Assembly (NCBI GenBank): GCA_017527365.1 | Contig: JAFXQD010000001.1 | Coordinates: 1-47,706, forward strand | Direction: 5' to 3' | Length of the DNA stretch: 47,706 nucleotides | Source of the DNA: Oscillibacter sp. | Lineage (GTDB): Bacteria; Bacillota; Clostridia; Oscillospirales; Oscillospiraceae | Part shown: positions 42,642-47,706 of the stretch, in pieces | Numbering within the stretch: position 1 is the first letter of the stretch | Layout: every line of letters starts with the position of its first letter | Made by a program: the position numbers and the translations under genes | Notes under the pieces: generated by a model | What the model was told of the DNA's origin: nothing | Seen by the model: the letters and a program-made list of their open reading frames with translations, nothing else | The model's database searches: none

Positions 42642-44198
42642 TCAGTCGGCTTTCTTGTCGGCTTTGGCTTGGGCTTTCTCCGCCTTCTTTTCGGCTTTCT
42701 TGTCCTCCTTCGGACGCGGGGCGCAGCGCCCGTAAGCCTCCGTCAAAGCGCGGATTTCCTCGGCGAGCTTCTTGTCCGCCGCCCCCTGCGCCATGCGCCA
42801 GCGCCAGTTCCCTTCGGCGGTGCCGGGGACGTTCGTCCGGGCATCTGTGTCAAGGGCGAGGTAGTCCTGCATTTGCGCTACGAACAGAACCGCCACGCTT
42901 CCCTGTCCGGCGCGCAACATCGCCTTGCGCAGGTTCTCCGCGCCCTTCGCGCCCAGATACGCCTCGGCGTAAGCCTTTTCGCCCTTCTTGACCGCCTTGC
43001 ACCAGCCCATGAGCGTGTCGTTGTCGTGCGTGCCCGTGTAGCAAATGCAGTTTGGATTGGTGTAGTTGTGGGGCAGGTAGGCGTTGGAGGGGTCGGAGAA
43101 GGCGAACTCCAAGACCTTCATGCCGGGAAGCCCCGCGCCGTCGCGCAACTCGTGCACGGCGTCGGTCAGGATTCCCAAATCCTCCGCGATGTAGGTGATG
43201 TTCGGGAACCAGCCGGTCAGGACGCGGAGCAAATCCATGCCGGGGCCCTTGACCCATTCGCCCGTTTTCGCCGTCTTGGAGCCGGACGGCACCGCCCAGT
43301 AGCTCTCCAGCCCGCGGAAGTGGTCGATACGGACGGCGTCGAACAGCCGCGCCGCGCCCTCGACGCGGCGTATCCACCAGCCGAAGCCGTCGCGCCTCAT
43401 GGCGTCCCAGTCGTAGAGCGGGTTGCCCCAGAGCTGCCCGTCCTCGGAGAAGTAGTCGGGCGGCACGCCCGCGACTTTCGTCGGGCGCCCCTCGGCGTCA
43501 AGCTGGAACTGCGTCCGCTCCGCCCACACGTCGGCGGAGTCGTGGGAGACGTAAATCGGCAAATCGCCGATAATCTTGATTCCCAGCCCGTTGACGTAGC
43601 CCTTGAGCGATTCCCACTGCTTGAAGAAGCAGTATTGCTCCCAAGTATGATAGGCGACTTCCGCCTCAAGCTCCCTGTGCCAGTGTTCGACGGCGCGGAA
43701 CTCGTGGTTGCGGAGGGACGGTTCGGGCCAGTCGAACCACGCCTTGCCCCCGAAGCGCTCCTTCAGCGCCTGATAGAGCGTGTATTCGCGCACCCACGCG
43801 TACTTGTCGCGGAAATCGCGGGCGGCGCGGGCGGTCTCCGGGGGAATGCGCGAGAACGCCTTGCGCAAAATCGCGGGGCGCGTCTTGGCGAGCGCCCCGT
43901 AGTCGATTTTGTCGCTCTGCGGGACTTGCGCGGCTTTGAGCTCGTCGGCGGTCAGCAGACCCTCTTCCGCGAGGGCGTCAAGGTCGATGAAGTACGGGTT
44001 CCCGGCGAAGGTGGACAGCGTGGTATAGGGCGAGTCGCCGCCGCCCGACGGCCCCAGCGGCAACACTTGCCACCAGCTTTGCCCGGCTTCCTTGAGGAAG
44101 TCGGCGAAGGCGCGGGCTTCCTTGCCAATCGAGCCGACGCCGTAGGGCGAGGGCAGGGAGAAAATTGGCAGGAGCGTTCCGGCGGAACGTTTTATCAT
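42642..44198 (-). CDS. malQ: 4-alpha-glucanotransferase (amylomaltase)
   Basis: Transfers alpha-1,4-glucan segments in maltodextrin and glycogen metabolism (GH77). The 518-residue protein starts RSAGTLLPIFSLPSPYGVGS and has PLGPSGGGDSPYTTLSTFAG, the nucleophile region FDAVRIDHFRG, the acid/base EDLGILT, and THDNDTLMGW. The last 25 or so residues are a Lys/Ala/Glu-rich helix-like tail not needed for the fold. The ATG just after the promoter is used; the longer frame overlaps the divergent TIR gene. Confidence 0.95.
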   Translation of the reverse strand: MIKRSAGTLLPIFSLPSPYGVGSIGKEARAFADFLKEAGQSWWQVLPLGPSGGGDSPYTTLSTFAGNPYFIDLDALAEEGLLTADELKAAQVPQSDKIDYGALAKTRPAILRKAFSRIPPETARAARDFRDKYAWVREYTLYQALKERFGGKAWFDWPEPSLRNHEFRAVEHWHRELEAEVAYHTWEQYCFFKQWESLKGYVNGLGIKIIGDLPIYVSHDSADVWAERTQFQLDAEGRPTKVAGVPPDYFSEDGQLWGNPLYDWDAMRRDGFGWWIRRVEGAARLFDAVRIDHFRGLESYWAVPSGSKTAKTGEWVKGPGMDLLRVLTGWFPNITYIAEDLGILTDAVHELRDGAGLPGMKVLEFAFSDPSNAYLPHNYTNPNCICYTGTHDNDTLMGWCKAVKKGEKAYAEAYLGAKGAENLRKAMLRAGQGSVAVLFVAQMQDYLALDTDARTNVPGTAEGNWRWRMAQGAADKKLAEEIRALTEAYGRCAPRPKEDKKAEKKAEKAQAKADKKAD

Positions 44199-44256
44199 AA
44201 CGGTTCCCCTTTCCGGACGCGGCGTTTTTGGGTTCGGGCTCTGCGCGTCCGGAGCT

Positions 44257-44285
44257 ATTATAATACAATCTCGGCGCGCAGGCAA
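44257..44285 (-). promoter_or_regulatory. Promoter of malQ
   Basis: Minus strand: TTGCCT, 17-base spacer, TATAAT, about 60 bases before malQ and probably serving malQ-queH-ROK. Confidence 0.65.
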
Positions 44286-44315
44286 GGCGGGCGCCCCGTT
44301 TTTTTCGCGCCCGCC
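44286..44315. repeat. Inverted repeat between the malQ and TIR promoters
   Basis: GGCGGGCGC at 44286-44294 and GCGCCCGCC at 44307-44315 with a T-rich loop. It directly abuts the malQ -35, so it could be a regulator-binding site, for instance for the ROK protein. Confidence 0.5.
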
Positions 44316-44337
44316 GCTCAATATATGTAAAAAACAC

Positions 44338-44366
44338 TGGACAAGACGCGCAGAATGTGGTAAACT
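44338..44366 (+). promoter_or_regulatory. Promoter of the TIR gene pair
   Basis: TGGACA, 17-base spacer, TAAACT preceded by TGG; the GTGGTAAACTGT string is identical to the lipoprotein promoter near 13.16 kb. Confidence 0.55.
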
Positions 44367-44399
44367 GTCGGCAGGAGGGCGCGGAAGGGGGCGGACGGC

Positions 44400-44861
44400 G
44401 TGGCGGACGTGTTTATCAGCTATCACGAGGACAGTACCGGAGAAAAAAGTGCTGGACAACTGGTGCCTAAAATCGCTGACGCGCTGGAAAGCGTCGGAAT
44501 TTCCTGTTGGTATGCGCAAAGAGACTTATCCTTCGGCACATTTGCAAGTGCTATTACAAGGGAAATTGATACCTGCAAGATATTTTTGCTTGTACTTAAT
44601 AAAGAAAGCAATAAATCCGCGTATGTGGAAAGCGAGGTACACCTTGCCTTTGACCGGATGCACCTTGATAGACAACACAATATTCAATCAATGCTACCCG
44701 TGTTATTTAGGGTAGATAATTGCGCCCTTTCCGATTCCATGAGATTCTATACAGGCATTTTTCAAATAACAGACGGAACTTTCCTTGATTCACAGCGTAT
44801 AGGCAAATTAGTTAAACGCATTCATGACTGTTTGCCTGCTTTAGACAGTGGTCATCCATAA
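44400..44861 (+). CDS. TIR-domain protein
   Basis: A 153-residue protein that is almost only a TIR domain. It opens MADVFISYHEDSTGEKSAGQ, has the BB-loop region SCWYAQRDLSFGTF and the C-helix AYVESEVHLAF, where Glu79 sits in the place of the catalytic Glu of TIR NADases. No membrane span or signal peptide, so cytosolic. GTG start, with AAGGGGG upstream. It is 44 bases ahead of a second TIR gene whose first 40 codons are close to identical, which suggests a partial duplication. Either an NAD-consuming effector or an adaptor for its neighbour; which one cannot be told. Confidence 0.85.
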   Translation: MADVFISYHEDSTGEKSAGQLVPKIADALESVGISCWYAQRDLSFGTFASAITREIDTCKIFLLVLNKESNKSAYVESEVHLAFDRMHLDRQHNIQSMLPVLFRVDNCALSDSMRFYTGIFQITDGTFLDSQRIGKLVKRIHDCLPALDSGHP

Positions 44862-44905
44862 AAAGCTAATGCTTTATCCGGTTCCATTTGAAAGAGGTGT
44901 AAAAC

Positions 44906-46423
44906 GTGGCGGACGTGTTCATCAGCTATCACGAAAAGAGCGCGGGGGAACTCGTCGCGCAAATCGCCGACGCACTGGAAAGCGTCGGAATTTCCTGCTG
45001 GTATGCGAAGCGAGATATTCCCTCTGGCGGCGATTTCGCCCGCTACATCCCGTTGCAGATTGACGCTTGCAAAGTCTTTCTGCTCATTTTGAATGAGAAT
45101 GCGCAAAACTCCAGACATATCGAAAGCGAATTAGGGCTTGCATTTGGGCGATTCAATCGTAAAGAGCAAATAACAATCCTCCCGTTTGAGATAGGAGATT
45201 TCAAACGAGAATCATGGATAAGGTATTACTTGATTCATGTGCAAAGCGTTAAATTCCAAAGCGTAGAGGCATTGGTAAAGAAAGTCGGCGGTATTTTGAA
45301 TATTCCAGGTGAAATAATGCCGTTTTCCCTTTCTTCACAGGATGTTCAAGTCGCTAAGACAGTCCAACGTCAAATGCCTCCTCGTAAAACTATTCAAAGC
45401 GGCAACTGCGGGGATAACGTCGCTTATGTTCTTTCCGAAAACGGCTTGTTGACGATTTTCGGAACAGGAGCTATGTGGAGTTACGACTGGAATAGAAAAA
45501 CTGGAACGGCTAACACGCCGTGGTGGGATATTCGCGCAAAAATTTCTCATGTCGTGATTCAATCCGGGGTTACTTCTGTAGCAAAATACGCTTTTTGTAA
45601 TTGCATAAATTTGAATGCCGTCGAAATGCCGGACAGCATAACAAAAATTGAGGTCGGCGCGTTTGACAACTGCATATGCTTGACAAATGTCATCATTCCA
45701 AGCCATGTGATGAAAATTGAAACTGGCACTTTCAACGGTTGTGTGAATTTAAGCGACATTCAAATTTCCGACAAGGTAACAAAAATTGAATTTGGCGCTT
45801 TCAAGGATTGTAAATATTTGACGAATATTATAATTCCTGATAGTGTCACAGAAATTGAACTTGGTGCTTTCGCAGGCTGTACCAGTTTGAACATTGCAAG
45901 CGTGGCGGCGAAAACTAACGTCAATTCCTTTTCATTCCCTGAAAATGTCGCAGTTATTCGCAGGAAACCTGCGCAACCGCTCGCAAACAATAAAAGCGGC
46001 GAATGCGGGGATAATGTCACTTATACGCTGGTCGATGGCATATTGACTGTCTCCGGCGCGGGGCTTATGCGGAATTACAACTTTGACGAAAAAACCTTCT
46101 CTTGTAACACTCCATGGTGGAATGTGCGAAAATCGATTTCCTCTGTGCGCATCCAAGACGGCGTTACATCCGTAGGAGCGTTCGCTTTCAACAGTTGCGC
46201 GAACTTGTCCCGCGTTGAGATTCCCGACAGCATAACGGAGATTTGCGCGGAGGCTTTCTATCGGTGCGGCAGTCTGCGTGAAGTCTGGATTCCCGACAGC
46301 GTAAGATTCATCCGAAAATTCGCTTTTGACGAATCGGGGCTGACAGAAATCAGTATTCCGAAGTACGCGAAAACAGGCTGGCGCACATTCCCCAAAGGCG
46401 CCCGCGTCATACGCCGTGCATAA
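44906..46423 (+). CDS. TIR domain fused to BspA-type leucine-rich repeats
   Basis: A 505-residue protein. Residues 1-130 form a TIR domain (VFISYHEKSAGELVAQIADA; BB-loop SCWYAKRDIPSGGDF; C-helix HIESELGLAF with Glu75 as candidate catalytic residue). A linker leads to two copies of a larger module at about 164-350 and 363-505, each starting SGxCGDNVxYxL and containing NTPWW, then LRR_5 repeats of the AFxxCxxLxxVxIPDSITxI type: about five in the first, three to four in the second. There is no signal peptide, so repeats normally displayed outside the cell would here be cytosolic. AGAGGTG precedes the GTG. The LRR half is distinctly A+T-rich against its surroundings, suggesting transfer. Domain calls are firm; role unknown. 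Confidence 0.88.
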   Translation: MADVFISYHEKSAGELVAQIADALESVGISCWYAKRDIPSGGDFARYIPLQIDACKVFLLILNENAQNSRHIESELGLAFGRFNRKEQITILPFEIGDFKRESWIRYYLIHVQSVKFQSVEALVKKVGGILNIPGEIMPFSLSSQDVQVAKTVQRQMPPRKTIQSGNCGDNVAYVLSENGLLTIFGTGAMWSYDWNRKTGTANTPWWDIRAKISHVVIQSGVTSVAKYAFCNCINLNAVEMPDSITKIEVGAFDNCICLTNVIIPSHVMKIETGTFNGCVNLSDIQISDKVTKIEFGAFKDCKYLTNIIIPDSVTEIELGAFAGCTSLNIASVAAKTNVNSFSFPENVAVIRRKPAQPLANNKSGECGDNVTYTLVDGILTVSGAGLMRNYNFDEKTFSCNTPWWNVRKSISSVRIQDGVTSVGAFAFNSCANLSRVEIPDSITEICAEAFYRCGSLREVWIPDSVRFIRKFAFDESGLTEISIPKYAKTGWRTFPKGARVIRRA

Positions 46424-46429
46424 CGACAA

Positions 46430-46453
46430 CTCCCCCGGAGAAATCCGGGGGAG
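46430..46453. terminator. Hairpin between the TIR-LRR gene and nifJ
   Basis: CTCCCCCGG/CCGGGGGAG with a six-base loop, followed on the plus strand by CGTTGCTTCT. By position it ends both convergent units. Confidence 0.6.
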
Positions 46454-46494
46454 CGTTGCTTCTATGGGGACGCTTTCGGGATAGCGTGCGCGGC

Positions 46495-47706
46495 TTACGC
46501 GTACATCTCCTTGAGCTTGAGCAGGTGCTGGTAGCGTTCCATAGCGGTCTTTTCGTTCTTGTCGAACAGGGTCTCGGCGCGGGCGGGGAACTCGCGGGTC
46601 AGGCGGCTGTAGCGCGCCTCGCCCATGAGGAACGGACGGTAGCCTTCCTCTTTCGGCTCCTTGCTGTCGAGCGTGAACTTGCCGGACTCCGCCGCCGGGT
46701 TGAACCGGAACAGGTTCCAGTAGCCGCACTCGACCGCCTTCTTCATCTCGGACTGGCAGTTGGTCATGCCGCCCTTGATGGAGTGCATTTCGCAGGGGGC
46801 GTAGCCGATAATCAGGGACGGGCCCGGATAGGCTTCGGCTTCCTGAATGGCTTTGAGGGTCTGCGCCATATTCGCGCCCATGGCGATTTGCGCCACGTAG
46901 ATATAGCCGTAGGAAATGGCGATTTCGGCGAGGGACTTCTTCTTGATTTCCTTGCCCGCCGCCGCGAACTGCGCGACCTGCCCGATGTTGGAGGCTTTGG
47001 ACGCCTGCCCGCCCGTGTTGGAGTACACTTCCGTGTCGAACACGAACACGTTCACGTCGTTTCCGGAGGCGAGGACGTGGTCAAGCCCGCCGTAGCCGAT
47101 GTCGTAAGCCCAGCCGTCGCCGCCGAAAATCCAGAAGGACTTCTTGCGGAGGAACTCCTTCTTTTCGAGGATTTGCGCCACGAGGGAGCAGGCGGAGCAG
47201 TCGCAGAACTGTTCGCCGGAGGCTTTGCGCTCCTCGGCGTGCTTGAGCATTTCGGCGGCCTTGTCCGCGCCGAAATACTCCTTCCCGGCGTCGCTGGCAA
47301 AGAAGGGAATGGTTTCGTCAAGGGTGGAGATGTTCGCCGTCAGCGCGGCAATATAGGCGTCGGCGGCGGCGCCGTTGGCGGAGCCGTCGGCGTAGGTGTC
47401 GAGCCACTTCTGGGCGGCGTCCTTGAGTTCGGGGCGCGTCTGGGGCTGGGCGATAAGGGTTTCCGTCTTGGCTTTGAGGCTGTCGCGGACGGCGTTGTGT
47501 CCGAGGGAGAGCCCAAGCCCGTGCTCGGCGTTGTCCTCAAAGAGGGAGTTGCACCACGCGGGCCCGCGCCCCTCTTTGTTCGTGCAGTAGGGAGAGGTCG
47601 CCGCCGGGCCGCCCCAGATGGAGGAACAGCCTGTGGCGTTGGAGATGAACATACGGTCGCCGAACAGTTGCGTGACGAGGCGGGCGTAAGAGGTTTCGGC
47701 GCAGCC
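46495..47706 (-). CDS. nifJ: Pyruvate:ferredoxin (flavodoxin) oxidoreductase, C-terminal part
   Basis: Oxidises pyruvate to acetyl-CoA and CO2 with reduction of ferredoxin; central to clostridial fermentation. The frame runs off the window, so only the last 403 or so residues are seen. They hold the TPP-binding domain: NATGCSSIWGG, the FGGDGWAYDIGYGGLDHVLA segment, DTEVYSNTGGQ, and a lone Cys region (FCDCSAC) linked to the proximal Fe-S cluster. The family is about 1170 residues, so roughly two thirds lies outside. Confidence 0.95.
   Translation of the reverse strand, partial: GCAETSYARLVTQLFGDRMFISNATGCSSIWGGPAATSPYCTNKEGRGPAWCNSLFEDNAEHGLGLSLGHNAVRDSLKAKTETLIAQPQTRPELKDAAQKWLDTYADGSANGAAADAYIAALTANISTLDETIPFFASDAGKEYFGADKAAEMLKHAEERKASGEQFCDCSACSLVAQILEKKEFLRKKSFWIFGGDGWAYDIGYGGLDHVLASGNDVNVFVFDTEVYSNTGGQASKASNIGQVAQFAAAGKEIKKKSLAEIAISYGYIYVAQIAMGANMAQTLKAIQEAEAYPGPSLIIGYAPCEMHSIKGGMTNCQSEMKKAVECGYWNLFRFNPAAESGKFTLDSKEPKEEGYRPFLMGEARYSRLTREFPARAETLFDKNEKTAMERYQHLLKLKEMYA

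What the first reader, a model, noticed from the sequence alone, without database searches (positions are those of the whole stretch)
44400..46423. Tandem TIR and TIR-LRR genes: a bacterial architecture reminiscent of immune receptors
Two adjacent cytosolic TIR proteins share one promoter. The first is a bare TIR; the second joins a TIR domain to two blocks of BspA-type leucine-rich repeats without any signal peptide. TIR domains in bacteria often cleave NAD or make cyclic-ADP-ribose signals in anti-phage defence, and both keep a Glu at the expected place (79 and 75). LRR_5 repeats are usually on secreted adhesins, so an intracellular use as a sensor would be novel. A sensor-plus-effector pair is my inference.
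Basis: partly seen in the sequence, partly recalled or inferred. Interest (0 to 1): 0.88.

Follow-up and report, generated by a model that had tools for sequence, protein, structure and literature searches.

The report
Bacterial TIR–leucine-rich-repeat receptor gene family
A bacterium related to rumen microbes carries an immune-receptor-like protein that joins a probable NAD-cutting TIR domain to leucine-rich repeats without an export signal; it belongs to a small gene family and might be a bacterial counterpart of plant and animal immune receptors, though its function is untested.

Summary
44400-44861 encodes a bare TIR protein; 44906-46423 encodes TIR plus two LRR_5 blocks, without export signal, behind one promoter. 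I collected 21 TIR-LRR proteins from 6 of 86 genomes of the genus (named relatives are mostly rumen 'Oscillibacter' MAGs). 0 of 21 has a hydrophobic N-terminus; 3 have one membrane segment between TIR and LRR, a fourth two hydrophobic stretches. The putative catalytic Glu is invariant in 41 of 41 TIRs aligned. TIR-LRR occurs in two separate TIR clades. Copies are GC-poor, mostly lone genes among housekeeping-like genes, often behind the same promoter. At the window's site a sibling genome keeps only that promoter and a 35-codon stub. Wider scans (capped) listed no TIR-LRR outside the genus; no phage or plasmid carrier, defence island or print record was found in my searches. Most likely each TIR-LRR is a one-protein receptor-NADase, SpbK-like in logic. 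The 'sensor-plus-effector pair' is not the rule (3 of 21 have a TIR neighbour). The anti-phage role is inference; faster LRR divergence failed its control.

The parts
44338..44366 (+). promoter (TGGACA-17-TAAACT, TG before the -10), shared in sequence, spacer included, with dispersed TIR paralogues
   Evidence: pattern search (13 of 18 hits lie before TIR genes of this family, reversed control 0)
44383..44391 (+). purine-rich ribosome-binding site of gene 1
   Evidence: sequence; similar block before paralogues
44400..44861 (+). gene 1: bare TIR protein, 153 aa; putative catalytic Glu79 codon 44634-44636
44893..44899 (+). ribosome-binding site of gene 2 in the 44-nt gap; no promoter-like site there
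44906..46423 (+). gene 2: TIR-LRR_5 protein, 505 aa
44915..45199 (+). TIR_2 domain of gene 2; putative catalytic Glu75 codon 45128-45130
45401..45970 (+). first module: N-cap (SGNCGDNV...) plus LRR_5 array, ending in an IRRK tail
45992..46420 (+). second module: duplicated N-cap plus shorter LRR_5 array
46430..46453 (.). terminator-like hairpin, most likely of the convergent TPP-enzyme gene (kept in siblings without the pair); may also end the pair's transcript

Best explanation
Gene 2 is a one-polypeptide receptor: the cytosolic LRR_5 array binds a protein or surface ligand, ligand-driven clustering brings TIR domains together, and the composite TIR active site cleaves NAD+ (to ADPR or a cADPR), stopping growth of the affected cell, most likely during phage infection. 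The bare TIR (gene 1), probably made from the same transcript, co-assembles with or amplifies the TIR-LRR. The family works as a set of receptors with a conserved TIR and exchangeable repeat modules (LRR_5, Sel1, RCC1), soluble or membrane-spanning. Shown here: domains, conserved Glu, absent export signal, paralogue family, TIR-LRR in two TIR clades, patchy presence and loss. Inferred: co-transcription, ligand binding, oligomerisation, NADase activity, phage defence, role of gene 1.
For: Domains over Pfam cut-offs: 19 of 20 TIR-LRR proteins scanned pass both; one, L152 (= G708_C146), is below it for LRR_5; one of the 21, G030_C4b, was not scanned. Glu invariant in 41 of 41 and aligned by profile with the Glu of the 'TNYELDG' stretch of the NAD hydrolase AbTIR and with oyster TIR-STING (that this is AbTIR's catalytic Glu is recall). 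Direct-sensing precedent: SpbK, where a phage portal clusters TIR domains and turns on NADase (PMC12847820: abstract, section 10 and passages). TIR-LRR in two TIR clades. Multi-copy, patchy distribution, GC-poor lone genes, loss to a stub in a sibling. In 3 syntenic pairs TIR is 80-86% identical but the C-terminal half 49-62%, and one pair has 2 against 6 repeat motifs.
Against: No defence island; neighbours read as housekeeping genes. PADLOC and NCBIfam give only weak TIR-domain matches (besides LRR matches), no system. Control: an exported LRR_5 orthologue between the same two genomes is only 59% identical, so the LRR divergence is ordinary for such repeats (one pair); only the repeat-number change stands out, in few pairs. 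The case for NADase is by sequence alone; not every TIR with the Glu is an active NADase. No structure, no assay.
Confidence: 0.5

Rival explanations
1. TIR-LRR proteins are NAD-based signalling receptors for a non-phage cue (envelope stress, competing bacteria, host surface, sporulation or growth state), the membrane forms reading the outside.
For: 3 of 21 have one membrane segment after the TIR with slightly more positive charge on the TIR side, which would put the LRR outside; promoter looks like an ordinary sigma-70 type; no link to phage or defence genes at most sites read.
Against: Patchy presence (6 of 86 genomes) and loss to a stub fit an accessory defence gene better than core signalling.
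Confidence: 0.22
2. TIR acts only as an assembly module or adaptor and the LRR as scaffold; no enzyme activity.
For: The survey PMC7075850 calls NAD degradation the less common TIR function (start of abstract in the listing; passages).
Against: Glu invariant in 41 of 41; profile matches to solved NADase TIRs.
Confidence: 0.12
3. Expanding and decaying lone-gene family with little present use (selfish or relic), spread with its own promoter.
For: The promoter recurs with the gene at unrelated sites, lone genes among housekeeping-like genes, 35-codon stub in G027, LRR array split by a stop in G708_C89.
Against: TIR halves of syntenic pairs are under purifying constraint (dN/dS 0.13 and 0.23; the third pair's dS was saturated).
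Confidence: 0.1
4. Host-directed TIR protein that disturbs animal TLR signalling.
For: Gut or rumen origin of named relatives; box-2-like CWYAKRD..G resembles TLR TIRs (motif comparison from recall).
Against: 0 of 21 has an export signal; single-segment membrane forms would keep the TIR in the bacterial cytosol.
Confidence: 0.06

Closest known systems
SpbK (Bacillus subtilis TIR NADase defence protein)
   Same: One protein with a sensor part and a TIR, with a Glu (E192) that the paper places at the NAD+ site; single-gene logic
   Different: SpbK senses through a small N-terminal domain, TIR is C-terminal, no LRR; by sequence only a weak PADLOC spbK hit, of the TIR-Sel1 paralogue
Plant TIR-NB-LRR receptors (TNL)
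   Same: N-terminal TIR, C-terminal LRR, intracellular, multi-copy
   Different: No NB-ARC/NACHT domain here; LRR_5 type repeats; no evidence of common descent of the architecture
Animal Toll-like receptors
   Same: TIR, one membrane segment and LRR in one protein in the C60, C28 and G019 forms
   Different: Domain order is inverted (TIR-TM-LRR); window gene 2 has no membrane segment
Thoeris ThsB and CBASS/Argonaute TIR effectors (PADLOC SAVED_TIR, Aga_TIR)
   Same: TIR domain, weak profile matches
   Different: No ThsA, SAVED, cyclase or Argonaute domain in gene 2; neighbours are MalQ and a TPP enzyme
Bacterial TIR plus P-loop NTPase (STAND-like) proteins
   Same: In other genera of the family and in a Blautia MAG, TIRs with the same boxes head such proteins (L154, L411, L412)
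   Different: Gene 2 and the other TIR-LRR proteins have no NTPase
BspA-type LRR_5 surface proteins (PDB 4gt6, 4fs7, 4h09)
   Same: The LRR_5 array and its cap; the same cap-plus-LRR module occurs in exported proteins of the same genome
   Different: Here fused to a TIR and not exported

Membership tests
TIR NADase (TIR_2, PF13676) | TIR domain over the curated cut-off | tested here: met
   54.1 and 59.7 bits against 28
TIR NADase (TIR_2, PF13676) | conserved catalytic Glu | tested here: met
   (41 of 41)
TIR NADase (TIR_2, PF13676) | NAD+ cleavage | not testable with these tools
   needs an assay; structure tool was off
BspA-type LRR_5 protein | LRR_5 repeats over cut-off | tested here: met
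BspA-type secreted adhesin | export signal | tested here: not met
   (hydrophobicity only): 0 of 21 TIR-LRR; four exported LRR_5 controls positive
Thoeris | ThsA-type effector next to the TIR gene | tested here: not met
   window neighbours are MalQ (Glyco_hydro_77) and a TPP enzyme (TPP_enzyme_C)
Plant-type TNL / STAND NLR | NB-ARC or NACHT domain between TIR and LRR | tested here: not met
   none in the Pfam scans of 20 TIR-LRR proteins
Toll-like receptor | extracellular LRR, one membrane segment, C-terminal cytosolic TIR | tested here: not met
   TIR is N-terminal; window gene has no membrane segment
SpbK-like single-protein TIR defence | phage-protein-triggered NADase giving abortive infection | not testable with these tools
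   experiment needed
Known defence system in PADLOC 2.0 | match to the whole protein of a system model | tested here: not met
   weak matches confined to the TIR domain

The most novel reading that the evidence does not exclude
Some rumen Oscillospiraceae-like bacteria keep a receptor repertoire analogous to plant and animal innate immunity: 7-8 TIR-LRR genes in each of the two richest genomes, soluble and membrane-spanning (TIR inside, LRR outside), with interchangeable LRR_5, Sel1 and RCC1 sensing modules, many under one shared promoter, built by repeated joining or exchange between TIRs and the LRR module of surface proteins, and turning over between species.
Probability: 0.36. Interest if true: 0.9.

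Novelty: new variant of a known kind. Interest (0 to 1): 0.62.

Why it matters
TIR effectors and LRR sensors are joined in animal and plant immunity, by a membrane helix or an NTPase. A bacterial family that joins them directly, with soluble and membrane forms and several copies per genome, would be a minimal receptor in which the TIR-LRR logic, including the question whether an NTPase is needed, can be tested in one small protein.

Tried and rejected
Faster LRR evolution as proof of an arms race: rejected, because an exported LRR_5 orthologue pair (own C20 vs G019 C182, 59%) diverges as much as the TIR-LRR C-terminal half (62%) between the same genomes (one control pair). Sensor-effector pair as a system: rejected as a rule (3 of 21). 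'At least two joinings': my first wording was too strong; the tree needs at least 2 changes of the LRR label on starred branches (5 in all), and a change may be a gain or a loss, so one joining plus replacements, or exchange of the LRR module, is not excluded; I lowered the novel case from 0.38 to 0.36 for this. Own terminator of the pair: dropped, since the hairpin is kept 3' of the TPP-enzyme gene in siblings without the pair. Clean empty site between malQ and the TPP enzyme: the two are not neighbours in the sibling loci read, but G027 has a stub there, and G708 has a TIR-LRR between ROK and queH where the window has a 23-nt gap, and no A4-type TIR beside its malQ where the window has its pair. 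Promoter as a regulon with partner genes: of 18 hits, 13 precede TIR genes and 1 the stub; the other 4 precede no TIR (two the same membrane-protein gene in two genomes). Phage or plasmid carriage: 28 phage and 16 plasmid records match, all under 60% identity, none covering 80% of the query; the 15 + 15 rows shown begin at residue 126 or later, so they are LRR matches; IMG/VR pattern scan 0 relatives. Rfam: 0 matches in 44100-46600. Print search: searches listed no paper that I could recognise as describing a bacterial TIR-LRR_5 protein; I saw passages or sections of five papers (PMC7159879, PMC12847820, PMC7075850, PMC8195603, PMC8866957) and listings of the rest. Limits: the broad scans (398 phylum genomes; 250 family; 394 order) scored 5-8 candidates per genome and did not list all rows, so rarity is provisional; of rows that might have hidden a TIR-LRR I read 13 loci and saw no frame with both, L409 showing neither motif; other phyla were not searched with the full architecture. 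The 25 genus genomes beyond the first 61 were searched only with the TIR profile A4. G708 is an 88% complete, 5% contaminated, 640-contig MAG. Repeat counts are regular-expression counts.

Full report
What is there. The window is a whole contig (C47) of a 2.07-Mb, 107-contig genome, 96% complete. Gene 1 (44400-44861) is a 153-aa bare TIR; gene 2 (44906-46423) is a 505-aa TIR followed by two cap-plus-LRR_5 modules that are an internal duplication. A promoter-like site (44338-44366) precedes gene 1; the 44-nt gap has a ribosome-binding site but no promoter-like site; the scan itself finds no more than shuffles would. The pair lies between malQ (Glyco_hydro_77, divergent) and the C-terminal part of a TPP enzyme that I read as pyruvate:ferredoxin oxidoreductase (convergent; Pfam gives TPP_enzyme_C, the PFOR name is recall). 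The hairpin after gene 2 is kept 3' of that enzyme in G019, G009, G003 and G027. GC is 43 and 46% against 62% for window bases 1-44000.

A family, not a pair. The genome has 12 TIR_2 hits: 7 TIR-LRR_5, 3 TIR-Sel1, the bare gene 1, and one other (Sel1 by Pfam for one, the other two by eye). Two of the 7 (C60, C28) have one strongly hydrophobic segment between TIR and LRR. The other own copies lie singly among genes that read as housekeeping and have GC 0.47-0.54. In the genus (86 genomes held) 8 match the TIR profile A4. Reading their loci gave 21 TIR-LRR proteins in 6 genomes: own 7, G708 8, G030 3, G019 1, G003 1, G709 1. Of 20 scanned, 19 pass Pfam cut-offs for both TIR_2 and LRR_5; L152 (= G708_C146) falls below for LRR_5; G030_C4b was not scanned.

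Topology. By hydrophobicity 0 of 21 has an export-like N-terminus (highest 1.22; four exported LRR_5 controls 2.24-2.92). Four have a membrane-like segment: C60, C28 and G019_C78 a single one after the TIR, with net charge +1 before and -3, 0, -1 after, weakly in favour of TIR inside and LRR outside; G708_C146 has two hydrophobic stretches inside its cap, so its LRR side is open.

Wider scans. 61 genus genomes, 250 family, 394 order and 398 phylum genomes listed no row spanning TIR and LRR outside the genus. Rows that might have hidden one (13 loci) were read: exported LRR proteins, TIR proteins with other tails, two TIR plus P-loop NTPase proteins (L411, L412), and one kinase-like LRR protein (L413), none with both (names by eye). 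These scans score few candidates per genome and cut their lists. A genome-contig scan with the TIR (79 loci kept, of which I read 26) found in relatives the same TIR with LRR_5, RCC1, or nothing, and in more distant ones Sel1 plus NTPase-like, MORN-like or other tails (RCC1 by Pfam; the other names are my reading).

Origin. In a maximum-likelihood TIR tree of 34 rows the LRR label needs 5 changes, at least 2 forced by starred branches: one TIR clade (ADVFISYH) and another (PYIFISY, with C62 and G030 copies) both carry LRR_5, while 5 of 6 Sel1 TIRs group apart with one bare TIR. Changes may be gains or losses, so two joinings, one joining with later replacement, or exchange of modules all remain possible. 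The cap-plus-LRR module also occurs in exported proteins of this genome, so the source was probably a surface protein.

Movement and loss. Own C19 and G708 C190 share neighbours (by my reading YchF and citrate lyase ligase), as do own C60 and G019 C78 (fusA) and G003 C66 and G708 C169 (spoIIIAH-like). Other copies are at unrelated sites. The promoter, spacer included, recurs at unrelated sites: a 30-nt pattern with up to 3 mismatches gives 18 hits in 8 genomes, 0 in the reversed control; 13 precede TIR genes of this family. One more, G027:C3, lies at the site of the window pair, 3' of the TPP enzyme: promoter, then a 35-codon ORF that reads like the cap and tail of a TIR-LRR, then the enzyme's hairpin. 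That is best read as a deletion relic at the orthologous site.

Evolution of the halves. In the three syntenic pairs the TIR is 80-86% and the rest 49-62% identical, with 0 of 10000 permutations as extreme in each; dN/dS where defined is 0.13 vs 0.22 (C19/C190) and 0.23 vs 0.32 (C66/C169), dS of the TIR being saturated in the third. Window gene 2 and its nearest TIR relative G708 C23 (not syntenic): 59 vs 43% (42 of 10000). Control against over-reading: an exported LRR_5 orthologue between own genome and G019 is 59% identical. So LRR divergence alone proves nothing; the change from 2 to 6 motifs between C19 and C190 is the stronger hint of changing specificity.

Mechanism. The Glu at 75/79 is invariant in 41 of 41 TIRs and falls on a Glu of AbTIR, an NAD hydrolase, in the profile alignment (its catalytic role there is recall). 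In SpbK the phage portal YonE clusters the protein and thereby builds active sites between TIRs; BB-loop and interface mutants lose NADase and defence (PMC12847820; abstract, section 10, passages). I propose the same logic with the LRR_5 array as the sensing part, and gene 1 as a co-assembling or amplifying TIR. Ligand binding, oligomerisation, NADase and anti-phage effect are inferred.

Known or new. TIR with LRR is known from TLRs (LRR-TM-TIR) and plant TNLs (TIR-NB-LRR) (PMC7075850, passages). Bacterial STAND and related conflict systems with effector domains and repeats are described (PMC7159879, passages and section 16; PMC8195603, passages). Direct TIR-LRR_5 fusion without an NTPase, and TIR-TM-LRR with TIR first, I did not find described in the searches; the library lacks most subscription papers. 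I rate it a new variant of a known kind.

Noticed in passing
L362:2795-4105 (= L147), goat reticulum MAG RGIG3329: The same TIR type fused to seven RCC1_2 repeat stretches (E 5e-65); unlike the TIR-LRR genes it is not GC-poor (0.61).
   Followed up: partly
L359:1702-2799 (G708:C74): One ORF with two TIR domains joined by a coiled-coil-like linker, under the family promoter.
   Followed up: partly
L317 (G030:C6:75448-75783 region), 851-aa frame; L411; L412: TIR or TIR-like N-terminus followed by a P-loop NTPase-like stretch (reading by eye).
   Followed up: no
L413 (G756:C35), 734-aa frame: Protein-kinase-like N-terminus followed by LRR_5-like repeats (reading by eye); another possible intracellular use of LRR_5.
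   Followed up: no
L029:1000-2100, L382, L383, L384: A second non-exported LRR_5 family: helical-looking N-terminus, LRR_5, hydrophobic C-terminus (seen in C30), 62-96% alike in four genomes of the genus; Pfam knows only the LRR_5 part.
   Followed up: partly
L031:1129-2373 (G000:C33): LRR_5 array fused to what reads like a cytidine deaminase (recognised by motif, no call).
   Followed up: no
L018:1973-3187, about 5.4 kb from the C62 TIR-LRR: GC-poor AAA_15/AAA_21 ATPase with PADLOC HEC-02A match (E 3.9e-28), the only defence-like gene seen near a family member.
   Followed up: partly
L371:157-966 and 972-1409 (G708:C89): TIR-LRR whose LRR array is interrupted by a stop and continues in the next ORF.
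   Followed up: no
phage records such as PV036433.1, PV036441.1: 28 phage records match gene 2 (under 60% identity, LRR part in the rows shown), e.g. Ruminococcus phages; function unknown.
   Followed up: no
L364, L365, L110: TIR-LRR genes sit beside what read like spoIIIA operon genes in two genomes (names by eye); possibly a rearrangement point.
   Followed up: no
L017:3254-3805: GC-poor (44%) protein with hydrophobic stretches near the C60 TIR-TM-LRR gene, no Pfam or PADLOC match.
   Followed up: partly
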